From Clostridia bacterium (GTDB lineage Bacteria; Bacillota_A; Clostridia; Christensenellales; Aristaeellaceae), in assembly GCA_017938645.1 (NCBI GenBank), contig JAGBBE010000093.1, forward strand, positions 48,914-112,913: a DNA stretch of 64,000 nucleotides, given 5' to 3'. Every line of letters starts with the position of its first letter. The first letter of the stretch is position 1. The notes under the pieces were generated by a model, which worked only from the letters and a program-made list of their open reading frames with translations, had not been told where the DNA came from and ran no database searches. This document shows positions 3,332 to 18,555 of the stretch, in pieces. Both the position numbers and the translations under genes were made by a program.

Positions 3332-4762
3332 CTATTTGTCCATGAGAATCTCCACGGCTTCGCGCAGGGTGGTTTCGGTGCCCACATTGCCCGGGAAAAT
3401 CACGTAGGCTACGCCGGGAAAACGGCTTTCCTCACCGGTCTGCCATACCGGAATACCGGGACGGATCTGCCCCAGCACGCGGGCACGCTTGACGCGCAGC
3501 GCTTTGGTGCCGACATCGCTGGAGGTGATGCCGCCCTTGGCCACCACGAATGCAGGGGCGATACTCAGATTGCCCACGAGCGACTGTACCGCGTCGGAGA
3601 TTTTCACGCTGCGAATAAGTGCAGCTTCGGGAGTGTCGTCGGGTACGGTGAGCAGGGTACGTTTGGTGTAGACGACCGGGGTCTTGCCGGACTCGATCAG
3701 CTCTTCGCAGCGCTTGATGATGTCGGCGGCTTCCTTTTCCAGCGCGCCTTCCTCCAGCACCAGATCGGAATTCATCTCGATAGGCACTACCCCGTCTACT
3801 TTGATCAGCTCCATCAGCTGTGCGGTGGTCTTCTGCGTATGCGAACCAACCACGACCATGCCGCCTTTGGCGGATTCCTGCGTGACCATCTCTTCGCGGC
3901 TGAGCAGAGGACGCTCGGGCACGCCGCCCAGGGTCTGCGCAAGAGCTGCAGCGCTGCGGAAACAGAAATGACGGCCTTTGCCAAAGGCACGGTAGAGTGC
4001 GACAGCGAAGACTTTTACATCGTAGGGATCCATAGCGTTGACGATTACCTTGCCAAAACCGGAAACATTGAGCAGCTTCTGTTCGATGGCATCAAAGTCC
4101 AGCGCGCGGATCTCGTCCAGCGTGATGGAGGTCACGGTTTCGGCCTTGAATTCGCCGCCGGTTTTCTCCTCGATGTATTCCTTCAGGTCGGAATGCCGAT
4201 AACCGAAGGTCTTGTCTTTGGCAAACTCGGTCTGCGCGGCGGGTACCAGTTCGTCGCCGTAGCGCACATAATGCGTGTCGTCCATGGTGAAGCGTCCGCC
4301 TTCGCGGAAGAAGGGACAGAGCACTTCACCGTCCATCTTCACGCCGTTTTCGCCCTCCATGCCTTCGCGGATAAGCTGGGTTTCCAGCGGAAAATGTCCG
4401 CGCAGGGTGGAGTCGCTGCGGCTGATGAGGAAGCAGTCGATGCCGGTTTCACGGGAGACCTGCGCGGTGTTTTTCACGATCTCGCGATGAGCGGCGGTGG
4501 TTTCGGCGGCGGTCATGCCGCGGGAATTGGTGAGGATGAAGAACATCTTGTTCTCCTCTGCAAATCCTTTGCGCAGGCTTTCTACCGTCCAGTCGGTGTA
4601 CACGGAGATGTCGTGCACAGTCTGTACGCCGGTGGGATCGTCGTCGAGCACAACGATTTTCTGCTTGTTGAGCGCGATTTCCGCCTTCAAAAGACGGTCA
4701 ACCTCCGCTTTGTGCTCGTCAGGAAAGGGAATCAGTCTCGAGGCCTGAATCGTCTGTTCCAT
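3332..4762 (-). CDS. Four-carbon acid sugar kinase family protein (DUF1537)
   Basis: A 476-residue member of the DUF1537 kinase family, whose characterised members phosphorylate D-threonate, D-erythronate, 3-oxo-tetronate and related sugar acids. The N-terminal sugar-acid-binding domain carries the signature VVLDDDPTGVQTVHDI (DDDPTG at residues 40-45). The C-terminal nucleotide-binding domain contains VAKGGITSSDVGTKAL. Length is normal for the family. AAGGAG before the ATG supports the start. It is the last gene of a long minus-strand operon and lies 23 bases after the class II aldolase. Kinase, aldolase and isomerase together recall the Otn/Dtn-type sugar-acid pathways, in which the phosphorylated acid is cleaved or decarboxylated to a triose phosphate. 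The exact substrate is not deducible here. Confidence 0.85.
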   Translation of the reverse strand: MEQTIQASRLIPFPDEHKAEVDRLLKAEIALNKQKIVVLDDDPTGVQTVHDISVYTDWTVESLRKGFAEENKMFFILTNSRGMTAAETTAAHREIVKNTAQVSRETGIDCFLISRSDSTLRGHFPLETQLIREGMEGENGVKMDGEVLCPFFREGGRFTMDDTHYVRYGDELVPAAQTEFAKDKTFGYRHSDLKEYIEEKTGGEFKAETVTSITLDEIRALDFDAIEQKLLNVSGFGKVIVNAMDPYDVKVFAVALYRAFGKGRHFCFRSAAALAQTLGGVPERPLLSREEMVTQESAKGGMVVVGSHTQKTTAQLMELIKVDGVVPIEMNSDLVLEEGALEKEAADIIKRCEELIESGKTPVVYTKRTLLTVPDDTPEAALIRSVKISDAVQSLVGNLSIAPAFVVAKGGITSSDVGTKALRVKRARVLGQIRPGIPVWQTGEESRFPGVAYVIFPGNVGTETTLREAVEILMDK

Positions 4763-4785
4763 AGGTATCTTCTCCTTTGGATCCG

Positions 4786-5589
4786 TCAGCAGTAGAAGCG
4801 GACCATCGTTTCGGTCATGCTCTCCCGTGCGGCAAGCACGGGCTTTTCCATGCGTTTTTCCGTTTCCAGCGAGCGCCTGAGCGCATCCGCGCCCGCCATG
4901 GTGATTTCGGTGTTGACGTTGATCTTGGCCACGGCAATGTGTGCGCTTTCTCTGAGCGTTTCCATGGGAATGCCGCTGCTTCCGTGCAGCACCAGCGGGA
5001 TCTGCACACGCTCATAAATCGTCTGAAGACGTTCCTGATCGATGTGTGGTACGCCCTTGTAGAGGCCGTGTGCATTGCCCACGGATACAGCAAGGCTGTT
5101 CACGCCGGTTTCGCGGACGTAAACTTCGGCCTGAGCGGGGTCAGTGAACGCGCTCACCTCTCCGCTGCCGAATTCGTCGTTCAGCCCGCCCAGTTCGCCT
5201 TCGAGGCTTGCGCCAAACTGGTCTGCCAGATGGCGTGCCCTGAGCGTTTCCTCGATGTTCTTCTCCAGCGGAAGGTCGCTTCCGTCGTACATCACGGAGG
5301 TGAAGCCGGCTTCCAGCGCCGCCCGGATGCAGTCAAGGCTGCGGCAGTGATCCAGATGCAAGGCGACCTCATGAGGATGGGTCCGGCTCAGACACCGCGC
5401 CATGGCGGCGATCACTTCCAGCGAGGCATTGTCCAGATACCTTTCTCCAAACGCCAAAATCACAGGCTGAGCCGCCCGGAGGGATGCTTCGAGCGCCGCC
5501 TGCATGGTTTCCAGATTATAAATGTTAAACGCCGGCACATACACGCCTGTTTGACGTGCATGTGCCAGCATGGCGATGGTATTGACCAT
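4786..5589 (-). CDS. Class II (zinc) fructose-bisphosphate aldolase family protein
   Basis: A 267-residue TIM-barrel aldolase of the FbaA/KbaY/GatY group. Visible metal and catalytic residues are LHLDH (D80, H81), the EGELG glutamate (E132), GNAHG (H174) and VLHGSSG (H202). All are conserved in enzymes that use zinc to form an enediolate of dihydroxyacetone phosphate. Expected chemistry is retro-aldol cleavage of a phosphorylated sugar or sugar acid, probably the product of the kinase next to it. It is slightly shorter than most family members. It lies 15 bases after the SDR gene on the same strand, in an operon with tight spacing. The aldehyde fragment released is unknown. Confidence 0.85.
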   Translation of the reverse strand: MVNTIAMLAHARQTGVYVPAFNIYNLETMQAALEASLRAAQPVILAFGERYLDNASLEVIAAMARCLSRTHPHEVALHLDHCRSLDCIRAALEAGFTSVMYDGSDLPLEKNIEETLRARHLADQFGASLEGELGGLNDEFGSGEVSAFTDPAQAEVYVRETGVNSLAVSVGNAHGLYKGVPHIDQERLQTIYERVQIPLVLHGSSGIPMETLRESAHIAVAKINVNTEITMAGADALRRSLETEKRMEKPVLAARESMTETMVRFYC

Positions 5590-5604
5590 CGTTATTCCTC
5601 CTGA

Positions 5605-6345
5605 TTACATGTAGGAGCCGCCGGAAACGACCAGGCATTCGCCGGTGACGAAGCTGGAATCGTCGGAGCACAGGAAGGCAGCGGCAGCGGCCAGTTCTTC
5701 GGGCTCGCCCAGGCGCTCCATGGGTATGGCGGCGAGGAAGCGCTGCATGGTGGCCTCGGGCACAGCCTGCAGCATCTCGGTGTTGATGTAGCTGGGAGCG
5801 ATGCAGTTGACGGTTACGCGGTTGCGGGCCACTTCACGCGCAAGGCACTTGGTGAAGCCGATCACGCCGCCCTTGGAAGCGCCGTAGTTGGTCTGGCCGA
5901 AGTTGCCGAAAGCGGATACAGAGGCGAGGTTGACGATCTTGCCGTACTTGCGGTTGCGCATGCCGGCAACGACGGCCTGGCAGCAGTTGTACATGCTCTT
6001 GAGGTTGACCTCGATCACCAGATCCCACTGGTTTTCGGTCATCTTGTGGAACATACCGTCGCGGGTGATACCGGCGTTGTTGACCAGAATGTCGATCTTT
6101 CCGCACTTCTGTTCGATTTCTCCGAACACATTTTTGACTTCTTCAAAGGAGCCTACGTTGCAGGCATAGCCGCCGGCGCGGGCGCCGGTGGGATCGAGCT
6201 TCGCAGCTTCAGCTTTGACCTTGTCTTCGCTCAGGTCGATCAGCGCCACATACTCCGCGCCGTCGTCGTAGAGCCTCTTGGCGATGGCCGCGCCGATGCC
6301 CTGCGCAGCGCCGGTAACGATAGCAACTTTACCTTCAAAACGCAT
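5605..6345 (-). CDS. SDR-family 3-oxoacyl/acetoacetyl-CoA-type reductase
   Basis: A 246-residue classical short-chain dehydrogenase/reductase close to FabG and PhaB. It has the Rossmann motif TGAAQGIG (11-18), NNAG (89-92) and catalytic S142, Y154 and K158 (LASVSAFG, NYGASKGG). The start at 6345 is preceded by AAAGGACGG; the open frame extends further but without a better ribosome site. It lies between the aldolase and a thiolase, so a 3-hydroxyacyl-CoA dehydrogenase or acetoacetyl-CoA reductase role is attractive. Oxidation of a sugar acid is also possible, since this fold serves both. Cofactor preference is not evident. Confidence 0.85.
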   Translation of the reverse strand: MRFEGKVAIVTGAAQGIGAAIAKRLYDDGAEYVALIDLSEDKVKAEAAKLDPTGARAGGYACNVGSFEEVKNVFGEIEQKCGKIDILVNNAGITRDGMFHKMTENQWDLVIEVNLKSMYNCCQAVVAGMRNRKYGKIVNLASVSAFGNFGQTNYGASKGGVIGFTKCLAREVARNRVTVNCIAPSYINTEMLQAVPEATMQRFLAAIPMERLGEPEELAAAAAFLCSDDSSFVTGECLVVSGGSYM

Positions 6346-6407
6346 AATGATTTCCGTCCTTTCTTTTTGAGAAAAAGCCGCCGGAGAGAGCACCGGCGGC
6401 CAAAATA

Positions 6408-7598
6408 TCAGTCGAGGTTTTCGAAGATCACGCTCATGCCCTGACCGCCGCCGATGCAAAGGGAGGCCAGACCGTAGCGGACGCCGCGGCGCTTCATTTC
6501 GGAGATCAGCTTGATGGAGATGATCGCGCCGGTCGCGCCGATGGGATGACCGAGGGAGATGCCGGAGCCGTTGACGTTGGTGATGGCGGGATCGATACCG
6601 ATCTCGCGGATGCACGCAAGCGCCTGGGAGGCGAAGGCTTCGTTGAGCTCAGCCACGCCGATGTCTTCCAGCTTCATGCCGGTCTTTTTGAGCAGTTTCT
6701 CAGTGGAAGCCACGGGGCCCATGCCCATGTACTGGGGATCCACGCCGGCAGTGGCAAAATCCACCACGCGCGCGATGGGCTTGAGGCCGAGTTCTTCGGC
6801 CTTCTGACGGCTCATGATCACCAGCGCAGCGCCCGCATCGTTGACACCGGAGGCGTTGCCGGCGGTGACAACGCCGTCCGCCTTGACGAAAGGACGGAGC
6901 TTGCCGAGCTTTTCCATGGTGGTGGCGCGGGGATGCTCGTCGGTGTCAAAAACGATGGTTTCCTTGCGGGATTTGATTTCCACGGGAACGATCTCATCCT
7001 TGAACTTGCCCTCGGCAATGGCTTTTGCCGCGCGCTCCTGGCTTTCCAGAGCGTAAGCGTCCAGCTCCTCGCGGGTGAGGCCGTACTTGGCGGCGATGTT
7101 TTCAGCAGTGATGCCGATGTGCTGCTTCTCACCCGTGGTGGGCTCGCACAGGGCGGTCTGCAGGCTGTCGAGCAGGGCGGTGGAGCCCATGCCCATGCGC
7201 ATGCCCCAACGGGCGTCCTGCAGGGTGTAGGGATAGTTGGACATGCTCTCGGCGCCGCCTGCAACGACCACGTCAGCGTCGCCGTTTTCAATGAGCTGGG
7301 AGGCGGTCACAATGGCCTGCAGGCCGGAAGCGCACATGCGGTTCACAGTCTGAGCGGACGCGCTTTCACGAATGCCGGACTTGAGGCTGACCAGACGGGA
7401 GATGAAGGCGTTCAGGCCGTACTGACCCACGCAGCCGTAGACAACCTCGTCGACTTCATCGCCGGTGAGGCCAGCGCGCTTGAGCGCTTCCTTCACAGAA
7501 ACCACGCCCAGATCAACCGCGCTCAGAGACTTGAGAGAACCGCCGAAGCCGCCCACAGCAGTGCGCGCCATGGAGACGATCACAGAATCCTTAAACAT
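6408..7598 (-). CDS. Acetyl-CoA C-acetyltransferase (thiolase)
   Basis: A 396-residue thiolase of usual length. It has the acyl-accepting cysteine in [10 protein letters not shown] (C89), the NEAFA loop, the catalytic histidine in GHPIGATGA (H351) and the second cysteine in CIGGGQG (C381). It should interconvert acetoacetyl-CoA and two acetyl-CoA. It is flanked by a BKACE enzyme, which makes or uses acetoacetate and an acyl-CoA, and by a FabG/PhaB-type reductase. The three form a coherent acyl-CoA module inside a sugar-acid operon. GGAGG seven bases before the ATG supports the start. Confidence 0.92.
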
Positions 7599-7618: not shown

Positions 7619-8557
7619 TTAGAACTCAACCTTATCGCCGCCCTTGAGCTGGAGCTGTTCGCGGGCGTCGTCGGGAGTTGCGATTTCATAGTCGAGGTCT
7701 TCGAGAATCTTCCTGATCTTGGCAACCTGCTGGCCGCTGCTCTGGGCCAGTTCGCCGTTGGGCTTGATGTAGAGGCCATCCTCCATGCCAACGCGCACGT
7801 TGCCGCCGTTCAATGCCATCATGGTGGCGATACGGAACATGCGGCGGCCGGGAGCCACGGTGCAGTACTGCACGTCGGGGCCGAACATCTTCTTGGCCTG
7901 GTCGATGATGAACATCATCTGTTCATTGCTGATGGGCATAGCGCCCATGATGCCGGGCACAAACTGCAGGTAGATGGGCTTCTTGACGATGCCCTTCTTG
8001 ACGAAGTAGTTGAGGTTGGCCAGCTGGCCGTAGTCGAACAGCTCATACTCGGGCAGGGTGCCGCAGGCGTTCATGGTGTTGATGCAGTACTCGATGTCCT
8101 TGAAGGTGTTCTTGAACACGTTATCCCAGGTGCGCTCGATAAACGGGCGCTCCCACTCGTACTCAAAGTTTTCCACATTCTCAGCCAGACGGGAGAAGCA
8201 GAAGTTGATGGAGCCTCCGTTGGCGGAAGCCATTTCGGGCTTGAAGCGCTCGATCACGGAGAAGCGTTCCTCGGTGGTCATGCCCTGCGCGCCGCCGGTG
8301 GTGATGCCGATGACGACGTTGGACTGCTTCTTGATGTTGGAGAGGATATACTCAAAGGTATCAAAGTCAGCCGTGGGGCTGCCGTCTTCGCGGCGGGCAT
8401 GGATATGAACGATGCCAGCGCCTGCCTTGGCGGCGTTCACGGCGTCTTCAATGATCTGATCGGGGGTCTTGGGCAGGTACTTGGACATGGTGGGAGTATG
8501 CACACCGCCGGTTACGGCTGCGCTGATAACGATTTTCCGCTGAGCTTTGGGTGCCAT
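7619..8557 (-). CDS. Beta-keto acid cleavage enzyme (BKACE, DUF849)
   Basis: A 312-residue member of the BKACE family, zinc-dependent enzymes that react a beta-keto acid with acetyl-CoA to give acetoacetate and a new acyl-CoA. The zinc histidines lie in VHIHARRE (H51, H53). The typical opening ISAAVTGGVHTP and the late block NVRVGMEDGLY, which holds the conserved glutamate, are present. The best-known member, Kce, works in lysine fermentation; other subfamilies use dehydrocarnitine, 3-oxoadipate and similar acids. Substrate-contacting residues cannot be assigned to a subfamily from sight. The gene sits between thiolase and sugar isomerase in the same operon. Confidence 0.88.
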   Translation of the reverse strand: MAPKAQRKIVISAAVTGGVHTPTMSKYLPKTPDQIIEDAVNAAKAGAGIVHIHARREDGSPTADFDTFEYILSNIKKQSNVVIGITTGGAQGMTTEERFSVIERFKPEMASANGGSINFCFSRLAENVENFEYEWERPFIERTWDNVFKNTFKDIEYCINTMNACGTLPEYELFDYGQLANLNYFVKKGIVKKPIYLQFVPGIMGAMPISNEQMMFIIDQAKKMFGPDVQYCTVAPGRRMFRIATMMALNGGNVRVGMEDGLYIKPNGELAQSSGQQVAKIRKILEDLDYEIATPDDAREQLQLKGGDKVEF

Positions 8558-8579: not shown

Positions 8580-9353
8580 TCAGTCCATTTTGAGAATGTT
8601 CAGGGTTTCCTGCGCCGCCTGTGCATCAAAGGGAACGTCAATTTCCACGGAGATGCAGCCGTCATACCCGGCCTCGTTCTTCAGCCGGGCGATGCGTGCG
8701 CGATGGATCTCCCGTTTTTCTGTTTTCAGATAAGAGCGTGCGCGGGGCGAACCTGCATCGTCGGAAATATGCGCGTGCGCGATTTTTCCGGCGTAGCTGC
8801 CAAGCGGAATATCCGCCTCCTGCGAATGCTCCATGTTGTAGAAGTCGATCACCAGCCTGAGGTTTTCCTCGTCCGCCAGAGCCCGAAGACGTTCCGCCTC
8901 TTCAAAGCGGTTGATGAAGTTGCAGTAGCAGGGCCCCAGCGCCTCGATGCACACGGTGATGCCATAGGGCGCAAAGGCGCGGCTGGTTTCCTTCATGAAG
9001 GCTACCGCCTGTTCCCAGGCCAGATTCACGTCAAACCCCGGTGCGAGCATCCGGCTGAAGGGCGAACCCACGCCCACGGTCTGTACGCCGAGGGCATGCG
9101 CACGCTTTGCCAGATGCTGCGCATATTCACGGGCGGTTTCCAGCGAAAATTTTTCGCCGATGATGGCGACCTCCGGCGGACAGTAAGCATTGAGACCCAG
9201 ACAGGGTTTTCCTCCGGCGACTGCCGCTTTGAGTTCTTCGAACTGCGCGTCCGTCATCGCAGCCACCTGACGGCCGGCAAACTCCACGTAGTCATAGCCG
9301 CTTGCACATGCCGCCTCATAATCCTGAGGCGTGACGACGATTCCATAGCGCAT
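8580..9353 (-). CDS. Sugar phosphate isomerase/epimerase (AP-endonuclase-2 TIM barrel)
   Basis: A 257-residue protein of the xylose-isomerase-like TIM-barrel family. Candidate metal ligands lie in CIEALGP, LVIDFYNM, AHAHISD and SVEIDVPF, the usual four-strand arrangement. Relatives include hydroxypyruvate isomerase, 2-oxo-tetronate isomerase (OtnI) and ketose 3-epimerases. The start at 9353 is chosen because AGAGGTG lies about eight bases upstream, formed in part from the stop codon of the preceding gene. An isomerase or epimerase of this type beside a DUF1537 kinase and a class II aldolase is what tetronate pathways contain, which favours a keto-acid sugar substrate. Confidence 0.8.
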   Translation of the reverse strand: MRYGIVVTPQDYEAACASGYDYVEFAGRQVAAMTDAQFEELKAAVAGGKPCLGLNAYCPPEVAIIGEKFSLETAREYAQHLAKRAHALGVQTVGVGSPFSRMLAPGFDVNLAWEQAVAFMKETSRAFAPYGITVCIEALGPCYCNFINRFEEAERLRALADEENLRLVIDFYNMEHSQEADIPLGSYAGKIAHAHISDDAGSPRARSYLKTEKREIHRARIARLKNEAGYDGCISVEIDVPFDAQAAQETLNILKMD

Positions 9354-9360: not shown

Positions 9361-9789
9361 TCACCTCTTGTCGATAAAGTTGATGCCGTACTCGTCAGGT
9401 CTGCGGCACAGGTCCACGCCGAGAATCTCAATCAGACAGATCTCAGCCAGATACTGCACCTCACAGCCGGGCTCGACATGTCCGCCGTAGCTGTTCTCGG
9501 GATCGCAGAATGCGGCGTGCAGATGAGGCTCGCCATCGATCACCAAACCCTGCAGCGCACACAGCTCGGTGGGTTTTTCGTAGGTGATATAGGTGTTGGT
9601 GGCGTCGGCCTCCAGCGTTTCAATGCGGTGATAGCTGGCCTTGCGAAGCGAACCGATGCAGCTGGCAACCACTGCATTTTTTACACCCAGACGCTTGCAT
9701 TCGGCGGCGATGCTGTTGAGAACATCCTCGCCCTTGAACAGGTGGATCACGATCCAGCGGCCAAACTGATTGCTTTCAAAGGTATTCAT
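9361..9789 (-). CDS. PCC/DUF296-domain protein
   Basis: A 142-residue single-domain protein of the PCC (plants and prokaryotes conserved, DUF296) family. The metal-binding pattern is visible as GEPHLHAAFCD plus GGHVEPG. Bacterial stand-alone members often sit in metabolic operons and are annotated as DNA-binding only by analogy with plant AT-hook proteins; no AT hook is present here. Its role is unknown. Its place between the ABC permease and the isomerase suggests a small enzyme or metabolite sensor of this pathway. Confidence 0.78.
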   Translation of the reverse strand: MNTFESNQFGRWIVIHLFKGEDVLNSIAAECKRLGVKNAVVASCIGSLRKASYHRIETLEADATNTYITYEKPTELCALQGLVIDGEPHLHAAFCDPENSYGGHVEPGCEVQYLAEICLIEILGVDLCRRPDEYGINFIDKR

Positions 9790-9831: not shown

Positions 9832-10668
9832 TTAGCCCTTGACGCTGCCTGCGGTCACACCGTCAACCAGATAGCGCTGCAGCGCGATGAACATGATCAT
9901 CAGCGGAGCCAGCGATACCACGGACATGGCGAACAGAGCGCCCCAGTAGCTGTTGCCCATGGAGTCCACGTACTGGCGCAGCGCCAGAGCAGTGGTGTAG
10001 GTACCTACATTGCTGAGGTAGATCATCTGGGAGAAGAAGTCGTTCCACGTCCAGATGAAGGAGAAGATGCAGGTGGTGATGATGGAAGGCACGCACAGCG
10101 GCATGATGATCTGCAGATAATGCTGGAAGAATCCGCAGCCGTCGATGCGGCTGGCTTCGTCCAGCTCCTTGGGCAGGCCGCGCATGTACTGCGTCATCAT
10201 GAACACGAAGAAGCCTTCCGTTGCAAAGAACTTGCAAACCGTGAGGGGCAGATAGGTGTTGATCCAGTTGAGGTGGTTATAGATGATGTACTGCGGGATC
10301 AGGCGGACATGGCCGGGCAGCATGAGAGTGCCCATCATGATCGCAAACCAGAACGAGCGCAGCGGGAAGTTCAATTTGGAGAACGCATAGGCCGTCAGAG
10401 AACAGCTGATGACGTTGCCGATGATAACGATGAATACCAGCAGGAAAGAGTTTTTCAGGAATACACCAAAGGAGTATCCGGAAATACCCTGCCAGCCATA
10501 GGCATAGCTGTCAAAGGTCCATACGCTGGGCAGCAGGGAGGAACTCTGGAAGATCTCCGTGGCTGGTTTGAAGGAGCCGGAAAGCATCCACAGCAGCGGA
10601 TAGATCATGAAAATGCCGAAAAGGATAACGGGAACATGGAAACGTGCGGCTTTCAGAAACTTTTTCAT
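9832..10668 (-). CDS. Carbohydrate ABC transporter permease (MalG type)
   Basis: A 278-residue inner-membrane permease of the CUT1 class with about six membrane segments. The EAA loop reads ELDEASRIDGCGFFQHYLQI and mediates contact with the ATPase. The typical ending YLVDGVTAGSVKG is present. The start at 10668 follows GGAG; the longer frame to 10713 lacks a ribosome site. It pairs with the MalF-type permease just upstream and with the SBP at 11683. No ATPase gene is in the operon, so a shared MsmK/UgpC-like ATPase encoded elsewhere is assumed. Confidence 0.9.
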   Translation of the reverse strand: MKKFLKAARFHVPVILFGIFMIYPLLWMLSGSFKPATEIFQSSSLLPSVWTFDSYAYGWQGISGYSFGVFLKNSFLLVFIVIIGNVISCSLTAYAFSKLNFPLRSFWFAIMMGTLMLPGHVRLIPQYIIYNHLNWINTYLPLTVCKFFATEGFFVFMMTQYMRGLPKELDEASRIDGCGFFQHYLQIIMPLCVPSIITTCIFSFIWTWNDFFSQMIYLSNVGTYTTALALRQYVDSMGNSYWGALFAMSVVSLAPLMIMFIALQRYLVDGVTAGSVKG

Positions 10669-10684
10669 ATGCCCATCTCCTTTC

Positions 10685-11566
10685 TTAATCGTAGTAAACC
10701 CACTTGTTGGCAAAGGCGAACATCAGGGCAGTGATCGCACCGATGATGGCCAGCAGCACCCACGCCATGGCGGAAGCGTAGCCCATCTGGAATTCGCGGA
10801 AGGCCTTCAAGTAGAGATAGAGCGAGTAGAACAGGGTGGAATTCAGCGGCGAACCAGTACCGCCGGAGATAATGAACGCGGAGGTAAAGGACTGGAACGC
10901 ATTGATGAACTGCATAACGATGTTGAAGAACACCATCGGAGTAAGCAAAGGAAGGGTGATCTGGAAGAACTGGCGAACCTTGCTTGCACCGTCAATGGTT
11001 GCGGCCTCGTAGTAATCCTCAGGAATCTGCTTCAGGGAGGCGAGGAAAATAACCATGGTTGCGCCAAACTGCCATACCTGCAGCGCGATCAGCGTATACA
11101 GAGCGGTAGACGGGGAAGCAATCCAGTTTTTGCCGGCAACGCCAAAAATGCCAAGCACCTGATTGACGATACCGGTTTTGTTAAAGAGGTTACGCCACAG
11201 AACGGAGACAGCCACGCTGCCGCCGAACAGAGAGGGCAGGTAGTAGGCCGCGCGGTAGAAGCGCACGCCGGGTCGATCCTTTTTGAAAATAACAGCCAGA
11301 AGCAGTGCAAAAGCCAGCTGCAGCGGCACGCCCAGAAACACGAATTTGACCGTAACTTCCAGACTCTTGATAAACTTTGCGTCCTTGGTAAAGAGTTTGA
11401 CATAGTTGCCGAAACCAACCCAAATTGGATCGGTCAGCATATCAAACGACGTAAAGGAATAGAAAAAGGACATGACCATGGGAATCAAAGTGAAACAAAA
11501 CAGACCCAGAAGCCAGGGTGTCATGAACAAGTAGCCTGCAATCGCTTCTTTGCGTTTTTGAAGCAT
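10685..11566 (-). CDS. Carbohydrate ABC transporter permease (MalF/UgpA type)
   Basis: A 293-residue permease beginning MLQKRKEAIAGYLFMTPW, with the EAA loop DYYEAATIDGASKVRQFFQI near residue 190. It forms the membrane channel with the MalG-type partner 16 bases downstream. Strong GGAGGAGG precedes the ATG. The 116-base gap separating it from the SBP gene holds a 15-bp hairpin. Confidence 0.9.
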   Translation of the reverse strand: MLQKRKEAIAGYLFMTPWLLGLFCFTLIPMVMSFFYSFTSFDMLTDPIWVGFGNYVKLFTKDAKFIKSLEVTVKFVFLGVPLQLAFALLLAVIFKKDRPGVRFYRAAYYLPSLFGGSVAVSVLWRNLFNKTGIVNQVLGIFGVAGKNWIASPSTALYTLIALQVWQFGATMVIFLASLKQIPEDYYEAATIDGASKVRQFFQITLPLLTPMVFFNIVMQFINAFQSFTSAFIISGGTGSPLNSTLFYSLYLYLKAFREFQMGYASAMAWVLLAIIGAITALMFAFANKWVYYD

Positions 11567-11682: not shown

Positions 11683-12972
11683 TTACTTCTTGTTTTCCTC
11701 GATGATGGCGTTGGCCTGCTCGACGAAGCTGGCAGCAGCCTCGGCGGGAGTCATGGCTTCGAAAGCCACGGCTTCACGGCAGTCGCCGAACACGGTATCG
11801 ATGGCGTTGGCGCCGGTGGGAGCGAAGTTGATGCCCTTCTCAACGAAGGTGGCAACCTCGTTCACGAAGTTGATGGCGGTAACGTTGGGAGCGTCAAGCA
11901 TGGGAGAGATGTACTCAGCCATCTTGGTGTTGCAGGGTACGCCCTGGTCCATCAGCATGTACTGAGCAGCGCCTTCCTTGTTGGCGATGAAGTCGAGCAG
12001 CTTGCCGGCGGCTTCAACCTTATCCTCGGCCACGGAAGCGGAGATGGACCACAGAGCGCCCTCGATGAAAGCGCCGGTCACGCCGTTGTCGCCCTTGGGC
12101 ATGTGGCAAACATCCAGCTCGTCGTTGGCCAGGTAGGCAACATACTGCCACAGCTGGTTGACGGGCAGGTTGAACATGGCAACCCTCTTGGTGGAGAACA
12201 GGTTCTGCTCCAGGGTAGCGGTAGCAGCTTCGGCAACGGTCTCGGCATCCGGAATGGCGTCGGCGTCGCGCAGAGCCTTCCAGTAGCCCCACCAGCCTTC
12301 AGCGTCTTCCACGGTGGAGCCCAGCTGGCCATCGGCGGTGTAGAGATCGCGGCCATTGGAGCGTACCCAGTACTGGTAAGCGGTGTAGCCGGTGACCTCG
12401 CCGATCAGGTAAGCGTCGATACCCTTTTCCAGAGCCTTGGCGCGGAATTCCTTGCACAGTTCGGCGAACTGGGACCAGGTCACAACCTCGTCGATGGGAT
12501 ACTCGAAGCCAACTTCTTCGCACAGGGTCTTGTTGATCATGAGGGTCTGCACGGTCAGGCCCATGGGGATGCCGATCAGCTTGCCGCCGACGACGCCGTT
12601 GGCCTGCACGGAAGCAGGAATGTCGGTGGTGTCGAGGATGCCCTTCTCAACCAGAGAGGTCAGATCATACAGAGCGCTGCGGCCTGCATAGTCAGCCACA
12701 TACTGGGCATGCATACCCATGACTTCGGGGGCGTCGCCGCCGGCAACCATGGTGGGCAGCTTGGACCAGTAGTCAGCCCAGGTAGCGGTCAGGCGCTCAA
12801 CCTTGATGCCGGGGTTCTCGGCTTCGAAAGCGTCCATGATCTTGTTGTACTTCTCGTGGCGGGCGGTGTCGCCCCACCACATGATGCGGATGGTGGTGTC
12901 CTCAGCCAGAGCGACGGAGCAGATGGACAGCAGCATCATGGCGGCCATCAGCAGAGACAGGAACTTCTTCAT
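11683..12972 (-). CDS. Extracellular sugar-binding protein of an ABC importer
   Basis: A 429-residue type 1 solute-binding protein. The signal peptide (MKKFLSLLMAAMMLL, then SVALAED) has a good signal-peptidase-I site after ALA. A cysteine is present, but isoleucine at -1 makes a poor lipobox. The mature part starts TTIRIMWWGDTARHEKY, typical of family 1 oligosaccharide-binding proteins. It delivers substrate to the two permeases downstream. It is first of the importer genes and lies 66 bases after the RraA gene, under the regulated promoter at 13801. GGAAGG before the ATG supports the start. Confidence 0.9.
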   Translation of the reverse strand: MKKFLSLLMAAMMLLSICSVALAEDTTIRIMWWGDTARHEKYNKIMDAFEAENPGIKVERLTATWADYWSKLPTMVAGGDAPEVMGMHAQYVADYAGRSALYDLTSLVEKGILDTTDIPASVQANGVVGGKLIGIPMGLTVQTLMINKTLCEEVGFEYPIDEVVTWSQFAELCKEFRAKALEKGIDAYLIGEVTGYTAYQYWVRSNGRDLYTADGQLGSTVEDAEGWWGYWKALRDADAIPDAETVAEAATATLEQNLFSTKRVAMFNLPVNQLWQYVAYLANDELDVCHMPKGDNGVTGAFIEGALWSISASVAEDKVEAAGKLLDFIANKEGAAQYMLMDQGVPCNTKMAEYISPMLDAPNVTAINFVNEVATFVEKGINFAPTGANAIDTVFGDCREAVAFEAMTPAEAAASFVEQANAIIEENKK

Positions 12973-13038: not shown

Positions 13039-13755
13039 TTACTTCTTCTCTTCAACGGGAATGACCGTGTCGTCGAGCTCCCAGCCCAGATCCTTGTACA
13101 GCTGCTGGCGGCTGGCCTTGTCGCCGTTCATCTCCTGCCAGGCGTACTTGGCGACGTCGTAAGCCACTTTGCGCGGCACGACGATGACGCCGTCGTTGTC
13201 AGCCACGACCACGTCGCCCGGATAAATGGCAACGCCGCCGATAGCGATCGGGATGTCCTTCTCGAGGTAGCGGATACGAGCCTGATCCATGCCCTGGGAA
13301 ACATGCTTGGACCATACGGGGATCTTCTGCATGATGACTTCGTCGGTGTCGCGGATGCCGCCGCCGTTGGTCAGGAAGCCAACGCAGCCCTTCTTCAGGC
13401 AGGAGAGGGTGTTGTTGGAGCCCAGCAGGCCAACGTCCAGACCGGCGATGTCCAGACACATGAAGTCGCCTTCTTCAATGTCCTTGCCCCAGGGATCGGT
13501 GCAGACATTGCCGTAGTACCAGTGAGCCCACTTGGTGTACTCGTCGCCGGTGCAGGTAGGAGCGGGACCTTCGTAAGGCAGGTAACGGGCGGTGCGGGCG
13601 ATGCCGACCACATGGGCGGGGAACAGAGGACGAACGCTCTTGTCCACGGTGCCGTAGTGATGGTAACCCATCCAGTCCATACCGTCACGAACGTCCGTTA
13701 CGCGGCAGGGGCTGAAAAGCTCGATCAATTTTTTGTTTTCCTCTTGATAAGTCAT
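13039..13755 (-). CDS. RraA-family protein (HMG-aldolase/oxaloacetate decarboxylase-like), copy 1
   Basis: A 238-residue member of the RraA superfamily. The conserved active-site block TNGGGIRDTDEVI carries the Arg-Asp pair that binds metal and substrate in 4-hydroxy-4-methyl-2-oxoglutarate aldolases, and GDVVVADNDGVIVVP is the typical late motif. Such proteins are pyruvate aldolases or decarboxylases in many bacteria; a role in RNase E control is not expected in Firmicutes. It is the first gene of the large operon, directly behind an operator-bearing promoter. A paralogue lies at 17308 in the other unit of the same regulon; the pair share long blocks such as RVTDVRDGMDW. Confidence 0.85.
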   Translation of the reverse strand: MTYQEENKKLIELFSPCRVTDVRDGMDWMGYHHYGTVDKSVRPLFPAHVVGIARTARYLPYEGPAPTCTGDEYTKWAHWYYGNVCTDPWGKDIEEGDFMCLDIAGLDVGLLGSNNTLSCLKKGCVGFLTNGGGIRDTDEVIMQKIPVWSKHVSQGMDQARIRYLEKDIPIAIGGVAIYPGDVVVADNDGVIVVPRKVAYDVAKYAWQEMNGDKASRQQLYKDLGWELDDTVIPVEEKK

Positions 13756-14125: not shown

Positions 14126-14171
14126 ATTATATCGAATCAACAATCCACATTTCTACTCATATTCTGTCTTT
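14126..14171 (-). promoter_or_regulatory. Promoter P1 with AraC-type operator copy 2
   Basis: -10 TATAAT at 14126-14131. Eighteen bases upstream is element 14150-14171, identical to copy 1 at 20 of 22 bases. No protein gene begins before the terminator at 13961. Confidence 0.6.
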
Positions 14172-14257: not shown

Positions 14258-15127
14258 TCATTCCTTCTTTTTGGACAGCCTGAGTTTGCGGTATTCCGTG
14301 GGCGACAGCTTGCCGGTTTGCTGCTTGAAAACGCGGTTGAACGTCTGTACGCTGGAAAAGCCCACCAGCTCGGAAATCTCCGACACGCTGAAGTCCGTAA
14401 CCCACAAAAGCCGCTGCGCACGGTTGACACGAAGCACGTTGAGATATTCCACAAAGGTGATGCCGGTGTTTTTTCTGATGTACTTGGAGCAATAGGTTTC
14501 CGTAAGCCCCAGATGATCCGCCAGCATTTTCAGCGTCAGCTTTTCCGAGCAGTGCTCCTGCATATAGGCAATCGCCTGCCCCATGTAGCGGTGGCTGGAT
14601 ATCTCCGCCCTCTCGCCCATCTGCACCAGTTCAGGATGCGCCAGAAGGTACGCCGTCATCTCGCAGATTTTGCCAAAGCAGTCGAAGGCGTCGTACGTTT
14701 CCGGCTGATCGTGAATCATCCTGCGCATCAGTTCCTTGAGATAGTCATCCGTACGGGCGATGAAAACGCGGCTGTACATCTCTCCGATTGCGTTTTTCTC
14801 CTCCGGATCCAGAAACGGCAGCAGCAGCCATTCGTCCAGAAACTTGACCTTTACAATATCTGCGTCTACCTTTTTCTGCTGATACTGATGCAGCGCATAG
14901 CCGCAGACACTGAGGATTTCGCCCTCGTGCACCGTGTAGAGCTTTTTGTCGACCATGATCTCCACTTCGCCGCGCGTTACATAGGCAAGCTCGACTTCCT
15001 TGTGCACATGCTTATCCGACACATAAAACGTATCCACCGGCGAGCACTGCGGCTTGCCCAGAAAAAGGTGATACAATTCGATTGCCGACTGCGGATTCAT
15101 GCGGATTTCATTCTTGCTGATTGCCAT
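14258..15127 (-). CDS. AraC-family transcriptional regulator 1
   Basis: A 289-residue regulator. The N-terminal cupin-like sensor (about 1-110, with HKEVELAYVTRGEVEIMVD) is followed by a linker and a C-terminal pair of helix-turn-helices (LKMLADHLGLTETYCSKYI and VSEISELVGFSSVQTFNRVF). The start at 15127 follows GGGGTGA. It has its own promoter at 15185 and a related regulator two genes upstream. Operators with an identical TGAGTAG core lie before three promoters nearby, so this protein or its paralogue is the likely local activator. The inducer is probably the imported sugar acid or its catabolite. Confidence 0.9.
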   Translation of the reverse strand: MAISKNEIRMNPQSAIELYHLFLGKPQCSPVDTFYVSDKHVHKEVELAYVTRGEVEIMVDKKLYTVHEGEILSVCGYALHQYQQKKVDADIVKVKFLDEWLLLPFLDPEEKNAIGEMYSRVFIARTDDYLKELMRRMIHDQPETYDAFDCFGKICEMTAYLLAHPELVQMGERAEISSHRYMGQAIAYMQEHCSEKLTLKMLADHLGLTETYCSKYIRKNTGITFVEYLNVLRVNRAQRLLWVTDFSVSEISELVGFSSVQTFNRVFKQQTGKLSPTEYRKLRLSKKKE

Positions 15128-15184
15128 ACTGTCACCCCGCCCTCTGTTATGCATCTGTGAATAAATACGACGTTTCATATCTTT

Positions 15185-15213
15185 ATTATAAAAACGCAAA
15201 GCTTGTTTGTCAA
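15185..15213 (-). promoter_or_regulatory. Promoter of AraC regulator 1
   Basis: TTGACA (15208-15213), a 17-base spacer and TATAAT (15185-15190) on the minus strand. Both hexamers match consensus, so basal expression independent of the operator-controlled promoters is expected. Confidence 0.75.
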
Positions 15214-15219
15214 CTCGCG

Positions 15220-16368
15220 TTATCCTTTCTCAATCCTGCACAACGCCAGATGCATCAGCACGGCGCCTGCAAACGCCACAGCCGTTGTGATCATCAGAAG
15301 CGAAGGCACGCTTACGCGGTCCAGCAGCGTTCCGCTCGACACATAGGCAATCAGCGAACCCAGCGTTCCCAGCGTACCGGCGTACCACTGTCCGCGCACA
15401 GCGTCCGTTCCTTTGAGCGCCTGCGCGATGTAATACACCGACGCCACAATGTACATGGCCGATCCCAGCGCCTGCGCCGTCTGCGCCATGTATAGTCCGA
15501 CCGCGCCGGGCACAAGCCACATCAGGAGACTCCTAACCACAAAAAACACCGAGCAGAATCTCAGCCAGAAAGAGCAGCGTTTTTTGGTCAGCAGCCAGCT
15601 GAAGGCAAACATTACCGGCAGTTCCAGAAACGCCGCTACCGACATGGCTGTGCCGTGGGCGCCGACGTCGTCCTTCCACACCGCAATCTGATACATGGCG
15701 TTTCGGATACCGCCGTGGCTGATGGTCAGAAGCATTCCAGCCGTCAGAAAGAGCGCCACGCCCGGATTGCGCCGGAAGAACGCAGCTGCTCCGTCGCCTC
15801 CGCGATCCCTTTGCTCCGTCTCCACACGGAGCGTCGGGAACATATGGACTGTCACCGCCAGCCCCAGCGCAAGAATCAGCGTGAACACCGGCACGGTCTT
15901 CATGCCACAGGAAGCAATCAGCCAGCTCGCCAGCTGCGAGGTAATCGAAAACGCAACCGAACCCAGCCCCCTGGCGCGGCCGATATCGATTTTCATTCCA
16001 GCCTTGACGCCCTGCACGCCCAGCGCATTGGCAAAGGAAGGCATGACATTGATCATGGTATTGCCGGCGGCATAAAGCACAACCACCGTCCACAGCCCTA
16101 CCGGCAGCAAAAGTCCGGCCATGGTCAGGCAAAGAATCAGCGAGCACACAAGCAGCACCTGACGAACCGTCAGGCGGCGGCTGTCGTTGAGCGCGCCGAA
16201 AAATGGCTGGAGCAGGAACGACGCACCGGTGGAAAACCCAAGCATGAGGCCTATTTGCGTGTTGTTGAGCCCTGCCTCGAGCAGATAGCGGTTCAGATAG
16301 GTCTGTCCCACGCCGTAGATGCCCCACAGCAGGCACTGCAGCGACGGATAATGAAAACGATGCTTCAT
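15220..16368 (-). CDS. MFS transporter
   Basis: A 382-residue major facilitator protein with about twelve hydrophobic segments. The first part reads LLWGIYGVGQTYLNRYLLEAG and resembles the LacY/NupG-like MFS_1 group that imports sugars or nucleosides with protons. Its start codon overlaps the stop of AraC regulator 2 by four bases (ATGA), and AAGGAGA precedes it. This indicates translational coupling of regulator and carrier. Substrate is probably a compound fed to the same catabolic enzymes. Confidence 0.85.
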   Translation of the reverse strand: MKHRFHYPSLQCLLWGIYGVGQTYLNRYLLEAGLNNTQIGLMLGFSTGASFLLQPFFGALNDSRRLTVRQVLLVCSLILCLTMAGLLLPVGLWTVVVLYAAGNTMINVMPSFANALGVQGVKAGMKIDIGRARGLGSVAFSITSQLASWLIASCGMKTVPVFTLILALGLAVTVHMFPTLRVETEQRDRGGDGAAAFFRRNPGVALFLTAGMLLTISHGGIRNAMYQIAVWKDDVGAHGTAMSVAAFLELPVMFAFSWLLTKKRCSFWLRFCSVFFVVRSLLMWLVPGAVGLYMAQTAQALGSAMYIVASVYYIAQALKGTDAVRGQWYAGTLGTLGSLIAYVSSGTLLDRVSVPSLLMITTAVAFAGAVLMHLALCRIEKG

Positions 16369-17228
16369 ACGACGTCTCCTTCCTTCATTCCGACCCGGTT
16401 GGCACGGGAATTTGCGCGGTATTCCGACGGCGTGCAGCCGCAGATCTTGCGAAATACGCGGTTGAAGGTCTGGATGCTCGCAAATCCCGCCTCCTCAGCG
16501 ATCTGAATGACCGGGCGGTTGGTGTTGGTAAGCAGGTGACGCGCATCGCTGACACGCAGGGTATTGACGAACTCCGTAAACGTCACGCCCAGCATCTGAT
16601 GAAAATATTTGGAGCAGTAGCTCTCGCTCATGCCCATGTGTGCGGCCAGCCTGCCAAGCGTCATCTCCTCGCCGCAATGCAGATGGAGATATTCCAGCGT
16701 TTCCGACAGGCTGCCAAGCCCGGCGATTGCATTTTTGCAAAAGTGCGTAATCAGCTCAGGTTCCTCCAGCAGAAGCGCAGAGAGCCTCATCATCTCCGCC
16801 AGACAGCAATATGCGCACAGCGGCCTGCCCAGATCCTGTTCCAGCGCCGCAAAGATCGCAAAAAGACGTTTGTCTTCTCCCAGCACAAACGCCTGCGAAA
16901 ACAGGTTCCGCATCCGCTGCCGCTCGTCATCATCCCAGAAAGGCGCTTCCAGCCACTGCGCCGCCAGTTTTACACGCAGCGCCGTCACCTCGTTTTCCGG
17001 AGGAACGAATTCATGAATCACAAATCCGCCGATAACCAGCGTCTGGCCCATGCCTACTGTGACGCACTCGTCATCGATGAGCACCTTCAGTTCGCCTGCG
17101 CAGACATGCACCAGTTCCAGTTCTTTATGCAGGCTGCGGGCGCAGGGCATATTCCGCCTGAGCACTGCAAAGTCTATCTGAGCCGCGTTGCGCATTTCAA
17201 ACAGCGTTTCCCGTCCGGCTTCCATCAT
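16365..17228 (-). CDS. AraC-family transcriptional regulator 2
   Basis: A 287-residue paralogue of the regulator at 14258. It has an N-terminal cupin-like domain and C-terminal double helix-turn-helix (LGRLAAHMGMSESYCSKYF; VIQIAEEAGFASIQTFNRVF). GGAGGACAA sets the start at 17228. It lies in the RpiB-RraA-AraC-MFS operon, whose promoter bears the shared operator, so positive autoregulation is possible. Which of the two paralogues binds which operator cannot be decided by sight. Confidence 0.88.
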   Translation of the reverse strand: MMEAGRETLFEMRNAAQIDFAVLRRNMPCARSLHKELELVHVCAGELKVLIDDECVTVGMGQTLVIGGFVIHEFVPPENEVTALRVKLAAQWLEAPFWDDDERQRMRNLFSQAFVLGEDKRLFAIFAALEQDLGRPLCAYCCLAEMMRLSALLLEEPELITHFCKNAIAGLGSLSETLEYLHLHCGEEMTLGRLAAHMGMSESYCSKYFHQMLGVTFTEFVNTLRVSDARHLLTNTNRPVIQIAEEAGFASIQTFNRVFRKICGCTPSEYRANSRANRVGMKEGDVV

Positions 17229-17260
17229 TTGTCCTCCGCCTCCTCGCACGCATGTGCAAA

Positions 17261-17287
17261 GCCGGGGCGAATCATTGCCGCCCCGGC
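17261..17287 (-). other. Stem-loop between RraA copy 2 and AraC regulator 2
   Basis: GCCGGGGCG (17261-17269) pairs with CGCCCCGGC (17279-17287). A short TTTGC follows on the minus strand. Probably a partial terminator that lowers regulator expression. Confidence 0.5.
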
Positions 17288-17307
17288 CTTGTTTTCAAAA
17301 TGCCGAA

Positions 17308-18072
17308 TTACTTTTTGTAGCCGAAGTTTGCGTCCATCCTGGCGATGAATTCATCGGTGAGCTCGACATCCACGCTGTCGTCGAACTCCAGACCGGCGCG
17401 CAGATAAAGCCACTTGCGTTCGGGCTTGTCATGATTCATCTCCTGTGCGGCGTACTTGGCAACATCGTACACCAGATCGGAGGGAACCACGATGACGCCG
17501 TCGCCGTCGGCCACTACGAAGTCGCCGGGATTGACGCACACGCCGTCAAGATTGATCTTGCAGTTATGGTTTTCGTACTGGATGCGGGCCTGATCCATGG
17601 GCTGAATGCGCTTCTTGCTCCACACCGGAATTTTCTCAGCGATCACTTCGTCGGTATCGCGGATGCCGCCGTCGATGATGTAGCCGGAGGAACCCTTCAG
17701 CGCGATGGGAATCAGGGAGTTCATGGAACCCATGAGGCCTACGCTGAGGTTGGACTGGTCGATGCAGAACATGTCGTACTTTTCGGCCTCGTCAATCCAG
17801 GGATAGATGCACACATTCTGATAGAACCAGTTGGACCACTCGGTATACTTATCACCGATGCAGCCCTGAGGCACAGGACGGTCATAGGGAATGTAGCGGG
17901 CAGTCTTGGCAAAGCCCATGGCCTTGGTGGGCCACAGCGGACGCATGTTGGGGCCCATGGAACCATAGTGATGGTAACCGATCCAGTCCATGCCGTCGCG
18001 CACGTCGGTTACGCGCATCTTGTCGTACAGGTTCAGGATTTCTTCCTTCTGGGACAGGGTGAGCTTCTTCAT
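17308..18072 (-). CDS. RraA-family protein, copy 2
   Basis: A 254-residue RraA-superfamily protein with active-site block IDGGIRDTDEVI and late motif GDGDGVIVVP. It shares RVTDVRDGMDW-GYHHYG and other blocks with copy 1 at 13039. Likely an aldolase or decarboxylase acting on an alpha-keto or beta-keto acid. The start at 18072 is preceded by AAGGAGG at eight bases; the upstream in-frame ATG overlaps that site. Two such proteins controlled by the same operator suggests either sequential steps on related acids or a hetero-oligomer. Confidence 0.85.
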   Translation of the reverse strand: MKKLTLSQKEEILNLYDKMRVTDVRDGMDWIGYHHYGSMGPNMRPLWPTKAMGFAKTARYIPYDRPVPQGCIGDKYTEWSNWFYQNVCIYPWIDEAEKYDMFCIDQSNLSVGLMGSMNSLIPIALKGSSGYIIDGGIRDTDEVIAEKIPVWSKKRIQPMDQARIQYENHNCKINLDGVCVNPGDFVVADGDGVIVVPSDLVYDVAKYAAQEMNHDKPERKWLYLRAGLEFDDSVDVELTDEFIARMDANFGYKK

Positions 18073-18105
18073 TGCGGTTTCCTCCTTATTCATATGATGA
18101 ATCCG

Positions 18106-18555
18106 TCAGGAACGCTGAGCGTCCATCTTTTCGAGCTTGGCAACCCTGCGGCGGAACTCCTCGCTGGTAGAGAACTCAGCCTTGAGGAATGCACGGATGA
18201 TGTCCATGGCCACCATATCGCCGATGATCTGGCCGCCCATGGCAATGATCTGCACGTTGTCGTGCTCCACGCACTGGTGCGCGCTATAGATATCATGGCA
18301 CACCGCCGCACGGATACCGGGCACCTTATTGCAGGCGATAGCCGCTCCAACGCCCGTGCCGCAGAACATCAGCCCGCGGTCAGCTTCGCCGCTGAGCACC
18401 TTGGCGCATACCTTCTGAGCAATATCGGGAAAGTCGACGGGATTGGGATCATAGCTGCCCATATCGGCGATTTCATGACCCTCCGCGCGAATGCGGTCGA
18501 TCACCTTGCACTTGAGAGAAAAACCCGCATGATCGGAACCAATGACCAATTTCAT
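18106..18555 (-). CDS. rpiB: RpiB/LacAB-family sugar-phosphate isomerase
   Basis: A 149-residue protein of the RpiB/LacA/LacB family, with GSDHAGF at residues 7-13, the active-site segment MFCGTGVGAAIACNKVPGIRAA and the late MGGQIIG. It isomerises aldose and ketose phosphates such as ribose 5-phosphate, allose 6-phosphate or galactose 6-phosphate. It is the first gene of the operator-controlled RpiB-RraA-AraC-MFS operon and is preceded by AAGGAG. In this context a pathway-specific sugar-phosphate isomerase is more likely than the housekeeping enzyme. Confidence 0.85.
   Translation of the reverse strand: MKLVIGSDHAGFSLKCKVIDRIRAEGHEIADMGSYDPNPVDFPDIAQKVCAKVLSGEADRGLMFCGTGVGAAIACNKVPGIRAAVCHDIYSAHQCVEHDNVQIIAMGGQIIGDMVAMDIIRAFLKAEFSTSEEFRRRVAKLEKMDAQRS

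What the first reader, a model, noticed from the sequence alone, without database searches (positions are those of the whole stretch)
3332..18555. Candidate undescribed pathway joining sugar-acid enzymes to a BKACE/thiolase module
One regulon holds a DUF1537 kinase, class II aldolase, OtnI-like isomerase, PCC-domain protein, RpiB isomerase and two RraA proteins together with BKACE, thiolase and a FabG/PhaB-type SDR, plus ABC and MFS importers. Known tetronate pathways end at triose phosphate and do not need BKACE or thiolase. The set suggests a substrate that yields both a phosphorylated sugar fragment and a beta-keto acid processed via acetoacetate and acetyl-CoA.
Basis: inference. Interest (0 to 1): 0.75.

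Follow-up and report, generated by a model that had tools for sequence, protein, structure and literature searches.

The report
Clostridial sugar-acid kinase plus BKACE cluster
A block of genes found in scattered Clostridia puts enzymes typical of sugar-acid breakdown in one unit with enzymes that cut beta-keto acids using coenzyme A, which looks like a breakdown pathway not yet described, although its food molecule is unknown.

Summary
The gene list is right: 3332-18555 (all minus strand) encodes a DUF1537 kinase, FBA-type aldolase, SDR, thiolase, BKACE, PF01261 isomerase, PCC protein, ABC importer genes, two RraA proteins, MFS, two AraC regulators and RpiB. The sugar-acid and acyl-CoA genes are conserved together: among 20 loci of this BKACE clade, 7 have the thiolase next to the BKACE, and all 5 of these whose contig reaches on keep BKACE-thiolase-kinase-SDR in that order; 11 and 12 of 20 keep the isomerase and PCC (0 of 60 next-nearest BKACE loci). 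So 'independent units' is not supported. A phloroglucinol module is unlikely. Best reading: an undescribed catabolic cluster for a sugar-acid-like substrate, with oxidation to a beta-keto acid, CoA-dependent cleavage and kinase-dependent disposal of the polyol fragment. Substrate unknown.

The parts
3332..4762 (-). DUF1537 (SBD_N/NBD_C) sugar-acid-type kinase; sister-lineage replacement of the kinase found in related clusters
   Evidence: Pfam 169.6/121.1 bits; D-threonate kinase model only 47.6 vs cut-off 450; tree and AU tests
4786..5589 (-). class II FBA/tagatose-bisphosphate-type aldolase
   Evidence: PF01116 255.6 bits; nearest PDB sequence 1gvf AgaY; motifs present
5605..6345 (-). SDR dehydrogenase, FabG-like, Asp37 suggests NAD
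6376..6401 (-). terminator-like hairpin between thiolase and SDR
   Evidence: pattern match only
6408..7598 (-). thiolase, BktB-like; Cys89, GHP at 350-352, Cys381 present
   Evidence: NF006552 511 vs cut-off 565, TIGR01930 subfamily 453 vs 241
7619..8557 (-). BKACE (DUF849) of a distinct clade; His51, His53, Glu172, Arg255, Glu259, Asp260 present; Arg239 and Arg242 clade-specific in the samples compared
   Evidence: PF05853 297 bits; NF053538 392 vs cut-off 430; residue tables
8580..9353 (-). PF01261 TIM-barrel isomerase/epimerase-like protein
   Evidence: nearest PDB sequences 3vnk/3vni, E 2e-7; Glu, Asp, His, Glu motifs (role as metal ligands recalled)
9361..9789 (-). PCC (DUF296) domain protein
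   Evidence: 69.9 bits; nearest PDB sequence 2dt4
9832..10713 (-). ABC permease
10685..11566 (-). ABC permease
11683..12972 (-). ABC solute-binding protein
13039..13755 (-). RraA-like protein 1; RD-x2-E present, Asn114 at 21 before the Arg
14258..15199 (-). AraC regulator (an ATG near 15127 would fit the 12/12 promoter-like match at 15213-15185)
   Evidence: start site is inference
15220..16368 (-). MFS transporter
16365..17249 (-). AraC regulator
17308..18093 (-). RraA-like protein 2; RD-x2-E present, Met124 at 21 before the Arg
18106..18555 (-). RpiB/LacAB isomerase
   Evidence: PF02502 170.5 bits; PRK05571 179 over cut-off 135

Best explanation
A conserved catabolic cluster of Clostridia for an as yet unidentified sugar-acid-like substrate. 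Imported acid (ABC or MFS) is rearranged by the PF01261 isomerase, RpiB and the RraA/PCC proteins (inferred, order unknown). The SDR oxidises a beta-hydroxy acid to a beta-keto acid (inferred by analogy with deoxyribonate dehydrogenase and TfD). The BKACE-clade enzyme cleaves it with acetyl-CoA to acetoacetate (or a substituted one) plus a polyhydroxyacyl-CoA, and thiolase works on the resulting acetoacetyl-CoA or 3-ketoacyl-CoA (family chemistry, not shown here). The DUF1537 kinase phosphorylates the polyol-acid fragment so that it can reach triose phosphates (inferred). Shown: gene content, conserved linkage, and that a DUF1537 kinase is kept even though the window's kinase comes from another lineage. 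Not shown: substrate, every reaction, order.
For: Of 7 BKACE-clade loci with the thiolase, all 5 whose contig reaches on keep BKACE-thiolase-kinase-SDR in this order and close spacing (L001, L003-L006). TIM isomerase 11, PCC 12, RraA 7, RpiB 7, thiolase 7, kinase 6 of 20 BKACE-clade loci against 0, 0, 0, 0, 1, 0 of 60 next-nearest BKACE loci. L003 holds relatives of all 16 window genes plus a second PCC. BKACE, thiolase and SDR of the window sit nearest those of L001, but its kinase does not (AU p 3.5e-4 and 9e-44), i.e. the kinase was exchanged and a DUF1537 kinase retained. In L007, L011, L012, L014, L017 and L018, which lack kinase/thiolase/SDR, a 3HCDH-fold dehydrogenase and/or a hotdog dehydratase follows the BKACE (Pfam-checked in L007, L011, L012; the rest from alignment or sequence), like TfD with TAL (PMC10470551).
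Against: No NCBIfam model reaches its cut-off for kinase, BKACE, isomerase or RraA; SDR and thiolase pass only subfamily models among the best 25 shown. PF01144 not found in 5 of 7 carrier genomes, one of them the complete Hungatella hathewayi chromosome, so acetoacetate activation is unexplained. 13 of 20 BKACE-clade loci (L007-L019) show neither kinase nor thiolase. SDR relatives are commoner in the 60 control loci (34 of 60, 25-37% identity) than in the 20 (5 of 20). Terminator-like hairpin before the SDR in the window. The 60-locus control is mostly Proteobacteria, so phylogeny is confounded with context; the control within Clostridia (27 loci) had only about 1.5 kb flanks.
Confidence: 0.45

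Rival explanations
1. A deoxyribonate-type pathway: SDR oxidises 2-deoxy-ribonate (or another 2-deoxy-aldonate), BKACE gives glyceryl-CoA (or tetronyl-CoA) plus acetoacetate, thiolase recovers acetyl-CoA, and the DUF1537 enzyme replaces glycerate kinase. TIM isomerase, RpiB and RraA serve co-imported sugars.
For: SDR + BKACE + thiolase + kinase is the published parts list for deoxyribonate (PMC6365646, passages).
Against: Isomerase, PCC, RpiB and RraA are at least as frequent beside this BKACE clade as the kinase and have no role in that route as far as I read it; no lactonase or recognised glycerate kinase in the block. The P. simiae proteins were not compared.
Confidence: 0.2
2. Two neighbouring pathways: a tetronate/sugar-acid set (kinase, aldolase, isomerases, RraA, PCC) and a BKACE/thiolase/SDR set that were merely brought together.
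For: Terminator-like hairpin between thiolase and SDR; 13 of 20 BKACE-clade loci show neither kinase nor thiolase, and the kinase lineage also occurs without DUF849 in the pieces held (0 of 7, L102-L108).
Against: The kinase lies between thiolase and SDR in 5 of 5 loci of the thiolase type whose contig reaches that far; isomerase, PCC, RraA and RpiB track the BKACE clade even without the kinase.
Confidence: 0.15
3. A phloroglucinol (triacetate) module with BKACE acting as triacetate acetoacetate-lyase.
For: Best NCBIfam hit of the BKACE is the 3,5-dioxohexanoate model (392 bits); thiolase and an SDR are present, as in phloroglucinol degradation (PMC10470551).
Against: Score below the 430 cut-off that the proteobacterial relatives L021 and L045 pass at 544-546. 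Loci that look like phloroglucinol clusters (L159, L160) carry a cyclase-like gene, a 3HCDH-fold gene and genes that read as CoA-transferase subunits (identified by eye), none of which is in the window block, and their DUF849s are 29-31% identical to the window's.
Confidence: 0.05
4. [quoted passage not shown]
For: DUF849 relatives with other chemistry exist: 5zmu by sequence match, BsfD in PMC12871164 (passages). The clade has R/K at both 239 and 242, 21 of 21 versus 0 of 60 and 0 of 27 others.
Against: Zn, base and Arg positions named for BKACEs are present; thiolase, 3HCDH or hotdog neighbours point to CoA chemistry.
Confidence: 0.15

Closest known systems
Deoxyribonate oxidation (Pseudomonas simiae; PMC6365646, passages read)
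   Same: SDR, BKACE, thiolase and a kinase for the polyol fragment
   Different: No DUF1537, TIM isomerase, PCC, RpiB, RraA or FBA in the passages I read; the window has no lactonase or recognised glycerate kinase
Phloroglucinol degradation TfD-TAL-thiolase (Clostridium scatologenes; PMC10470551, passages and sections 8-9 read)
   Same: Beta-hydroxy acid dehydrogenase next to a BKACE, thiolase co-induced, in Clostridia
   Different: The window block lacks a cyclase and CoA-transferase gene; its BKACE is 29-31% identical to the DUF849s of the look-alike clusters L159 and L160
Tetronate pathways OtnK/OtnC/OtnI, LtnD (recalled; NCBIfam models)
   Same: DUF1537 kinase and a PF01261 isomerase
   Different: Kinase 28-48 bits against cut-offs 350-450; no PF00596 decarboxylase or PdxA2 in the block; BKACE and thiolase added
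D-apionate pathways OiaK/OiaC (recalled)
   Same: DUF1537 kinase and PF01261 enzyme
   Different: OiaK model 18 bits against cut-off 700; BKACE and thiolase added

Membership tests
BKACE (beta-keto acid cleavage enzyme) | Pfam PF05853 over gathering score | tested here: met
   297.3 vs 24.8 bits
BKACE (beta-keto acid cleavage enzyme) | Zn ligands, catalytic Glu (E171 of PdKce) and Arg/Glu/Asp near beta-8 | tested here: met
   H51, H53, E172, R255, E259, D260; E171 from PMC11961710 (passages), the others recalled
BKACE (beta-keto acid cleavage enzyme) | Tyr at PdKce 173 (PMC12871164 says all BKACEs have it) | tested here: inconclusive
   Phe174 in the window and 20 of 20 clade loci, but Phe also in 27 of 27 other DUF849s of the clostridial sample, so the feature does not define the family
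3,5-dioxohexanoate:acetyl-CoA transferase (NF053538) | score over curated cut-off 430 | tested here: not met
   391.9; L002, L005 and L007 386-388
Tetronate kinases (D-threonate kinase NF047819, 3-oxo-tetronate kinase NF043035) | score over curated cut-off | tested here: not met
   47.6 of 450 and 28.1 of 350
2-oxo-tetronate isomerase OtnI (NF043033) | score over curated cut-off 325 | tested here: not met
   29.0
HMG/CHA aldolase-type RraA | D-x20-R-D-x2-E/D motif (recalled) | tested here: not met
   R-D-x2-E present, but Asn114 and Met124 in place of the Asp
Phloroglucinol degradation cluster | cyclase-family gene beside the BKACE, often CoA-transferase | tested here: not met
   no such family in the window block; look-alike genes read by eye in L159 and L160
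Deoxyribonate pathway | activity on deoxyribonate | not testable with these tools
   -

The most novel reading that the evidence does not exclude
DUF1537 kinases of this lineage and DUF849 enzymes are a recurring partnership: the window-type BKACE clade, a distant Kce-like DUF849 placed 33 bp from a GH127-DUF1537 fusion protein with alpha-L-rhamnosidase and GH42 genes (L098), and a third DUF849 in a cluster with a lyxose-isomerase-like gene, transketolase genes and a PF01261 gene (L099, kinase 3.8 kb away on the other strand). Together they would be a general, undescribed kinase-plus-CoA-cleavage strategy for rare plant-wall sugar acids in Clostridia, possibly including a pectin (RG-II) acid such as aceric acid (last point recalled chemistry and speculation).
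Probability: 0.2. Interest if true: 0.8.

Novelty: new variant of a known kind. Interest (0 to 1): 0.5.

Why it matters
If right, it adds an anaerobic sugar-acid route that uses CoA-dependent beta-keto acid cleavage together with a kinase, gives a setting in which RraA and PCC proteins could be tested as metabolic proteins, and points to cultured organisms that carry the cluster (Massiliimalia timonensis, Hungatella hathewayi) in which the substrate could be found.

Tried and rejected
Tyr-to-Phe in the BKACE as a sign of new chemistry: it looked clean (Phe in 21 of 21, Tyr in 60 of 60), but 27 of 27 other DUF849s found in a sample of 206 genomes of the class of G005 also have Phe, so it was dropped.

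DUF849-DUF1537 partnership as a general rule: it holds at L098 and L099, but 0 of 27 other DUF849 loci of that sample (about 1.5 kb flanks) had this kinase, 0 of 7 other kinase loci L102-L108 had a DUF849 in the piece held (L104 only 6.5 kb), and L158, which resembles the L099 cluster, has no kinase in 14 kb. L098 and L099 were picked after the fact.

Phosphorylated substrate for the BKACE (basic residues 239 and 242 as phosphate binders): not excluded, but the same residues occur in loci without a kinase nearby. Phloroglucinol: judged unlikely as above. TfD-like (free-acid) character of the 3HCDH proteins in L011-L018: aligned with L159 and L160 but not decided. No structure was predicted, because no coordinates would come back for a pocket analysis. 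Tests in the window's own genome were not possible.

Full report
What is there. The block 3332-18555 lies wholly on the minus strand. From 18555 down: RpiB, RraA2, AraC, MFS, AraC; a gap of about 500 bp; then RraA1, SBP, two permeases, PCC, PF01261 isomerase, BKACE, thiolase, SDR, FBA aldolase, DUF1537 kinase. I saw no ABC ATPase gene in the block. Motifs present: kinase DDDPTG and RSDSTLRG; FBA DH, EGE, HG, HG and KINVNT; SDR TGAAQGIG, Asp37, NNAG and YGASK; thiolase Cys89, GHP and Cys381; BKACE His51, His53, Glu172, Arg255, Glu259 and Asp260; isomerase Glu, Asp, His, Glu motifs. The RraA proteins keep R-D-x2-E but have Asn or Met where the recalled aldolase motif has Asp. A terminator-like hairpin sits between thiolase and SDR (6401-6376), a 12/12 promoter-like match at 15213-15185, and 10/12 matches at 14155 and 13829 upstream of RraA1 (pattern matches only; promoter-like matches in total 11 against 7.8 expected, terminator-like 29 against 17.6). 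'One regulon' is therefore an inference.

Is it a unit? Of the 20, 18 are titled as Clostridia, Firmicutes or Bacillota; L016 is titled Deltaproteobacteria and L017 only 'Bacterium'; L007 and L008 lie on one contig. The 60 are mostly Proteobacteria. Neighbour search with 16 window proteins (E 1e-8, half the query covered): TIM isomerase 11 of 20, PCC 12, RraA1 7, RpiB 7, thiolase 7, kinase 6, ABC permease 1 9, SBP 6, SDR 5, FBA 2, RraA2 1; in the 60: 0, 0, 0, 0, 1, 0, 1, 0, 34, 0, 0. Some of the 20-locus hits are weak (isomerase 29% in L009, PCC 31-32% in L008 and L009, permease 26-27% in some). SDR relatives are commoner in the 60, at 25-37% identity. The controls differ in phylum, so the Fisher values are only a guide. 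Seven of the 20 have the thiolase after the BKACE (L001-L006, L020). BKACE-thiolase-kinase-SDR is kept in this order in 5 of 5 of these whose contigs reach that far (L001, L003, L004, L005, L006), with spacings from -52 to +50 bp (first-start ORFs, so overlaps are overstated). L020 ends after the kinase and L002 after the thiolase; separate contigs of the L002 genome hold thiolase-kinase-SDR (L086) and kinase-SDR (L117). L003 holds relatives of all 16 window genes. The clade was rare in the samples: 1 of 396, 1 of 394, 3 of 150 and 2 of 200 genomes at E 1e-100 (each sample includes the centre genome).

The kinase of the window is a replacement. In the kinase tree (19 rows) the 8 kinases of the conserved clusters group together (90/90, not starred), while the window's groups with two kinases from other settings (100/99): L099 and L102, the latter beside a dehydrogenase over the cut-off of a 2-hydroxy-3-oxopropionate reductase model. 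Holding the window with the cluster kinases is rejected (AU p 3.5e-4), with L001 alone even more (9e-44); the groups were named after seeing the tree. BKACE, thiolase and SDR of the window sit nearest L001 (starred support only for thiolase). The window also has another gene order (SDR, FBA, kinase last). That a kinase of the same family was kept suggests the step is needed (inference).

Two kinds of BKACE-clade locus. Type A has thiolase and, where the contig allows, kinase and SDR. The other 13 (L007-L019) show neither kinase nor thiolase; L015 ends inside the BKACE gene and carries the type A upstream genes, L011 and L016 end within 1.4 kb after it. In six of the 13 (L007, L011, L012, L014, L017, L018) a hotdog dehydratase and/or a 3HCDH-fold dehydrogenase follows the BKACE (Pfam-checked in L007, L011, L012; from alignment or sequence in L014, L017, L018); L019 has a hotdog-like ORF by eye. 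In L008, L009, L010 and L013 I saw neither among the ORFs called after the BKACE (in L013 a longer opposite-strand ORF covers that stretch). TRAP- and TTT-type transporters in L007 and L018 were read from sequence, not searched. In phloroglucinol degradation a 3HCDH-fold enzyme makes the beta-keto acid that the BKACE cleaves (PMC10470551: outline with abstract, passages, sections 8 and 9), and in deoxyribonate degradation an SDR does (PMC6365646: passages). The most economical reading is the same here.

What is not settled. The kinase, BKACE, isomerase and RraA proteins reach no NCBIfam cut-off; RpiB does, and SDR and thiolase pass broad subfamily models. The BKACE clade has R/K at both 239 and 242 in 21 of 21, against 0 of 60 and 0 of 27 others, which may mean a more acidic substrate or another CoA grip. 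A tempting Tyr-to-Phe change proved common in clostridial DUF849s (27 of 27), which does not fit the statement in PMC12871164 (passages) that all BKACEs have the Tyr. PF01144 was found in 2 of 7 carrier genomes (of the 5 without a match, 4 are not complete assemblies and H. hathewayi is titled complete; other acetoacetate-activating families were not searched). If acetoacetate is made, its fate is open; thiolase could instead act on a 3-ketoacyl-CoA derived from the other product.

Literature. In the listings (0 papers; 30 of 33 shown), 33 and 74 I saw no paper that joins these families; only openly licensed PMC text was searched. PMC11961710 (passages) gives the PdKce catalytic Glu and substrates; PMC12133276 (passages) gave nothing on specificity. 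Tetronate and apionate pathways are recalled.

Verdict.

Noticed in passing
L098 9384-12728 (-), 8550-9350 (-): GH127 beta-L-arabinofuranosidase fused to a DUF1537 kinase in one 1114-aa ORF, 33 bp from a DUF849 gene, with GH78 and GH42 genes: a link between plant-wall sugars, this kinase lineage and DUF849.
   Followed up: partly
L099 8848-18494: Another cluster: DUF849, enoyl-CoA hydratase, PF01261, lyxose-isomerase-like, split transketolase and ABC genes, with the kinase 3.8 kb from the DUF849 on the other strand; a similar LyxIso-DUF849-TIM set in L158 has no kinase in 14 kb.
   Followed up: partly
L103, L104, L106, L107: The kinase lineage sits beside an Asp/Glu-racemase-family gene (PF01177 checked in L103; the others judged by sequence), suggesting a second unknown use.
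   Followed up: no
L131-L157: All 27 DUF849s found (besides L126) in the 206-genome sample have Phe where PMC12871164 states that all BKACEs have Tyr.
   Followed up: yes
   Followed up: partly
window 1008-1601: Serine resolvase gene close to the low end of the cluster; together with the patchy distribution it may hint at mobility.
   Followed up: no
window 19019-23659: 1546-aa repetitive protein, by eye BspA-like leucine-rich repeats with a lipase-like GHSRG motif near the N terminus.
   Followed up: no
window 27021-60571: Several glycan-use genes: GH97 33102-35627, GH30 54947-56293, GH5 57321-59045, ABC importers, SIS and BadF-type genes 42844-44866.
   Followed up: no
L012 800-2263 (-): HpaB-family gene (by eye 4-hydroxybutyryl-CoA-dehydratase-like) beside PCC in the locus of a type B BKACE; a similar gene, by eye, is cut off at the end of L017.
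   Followed up: no
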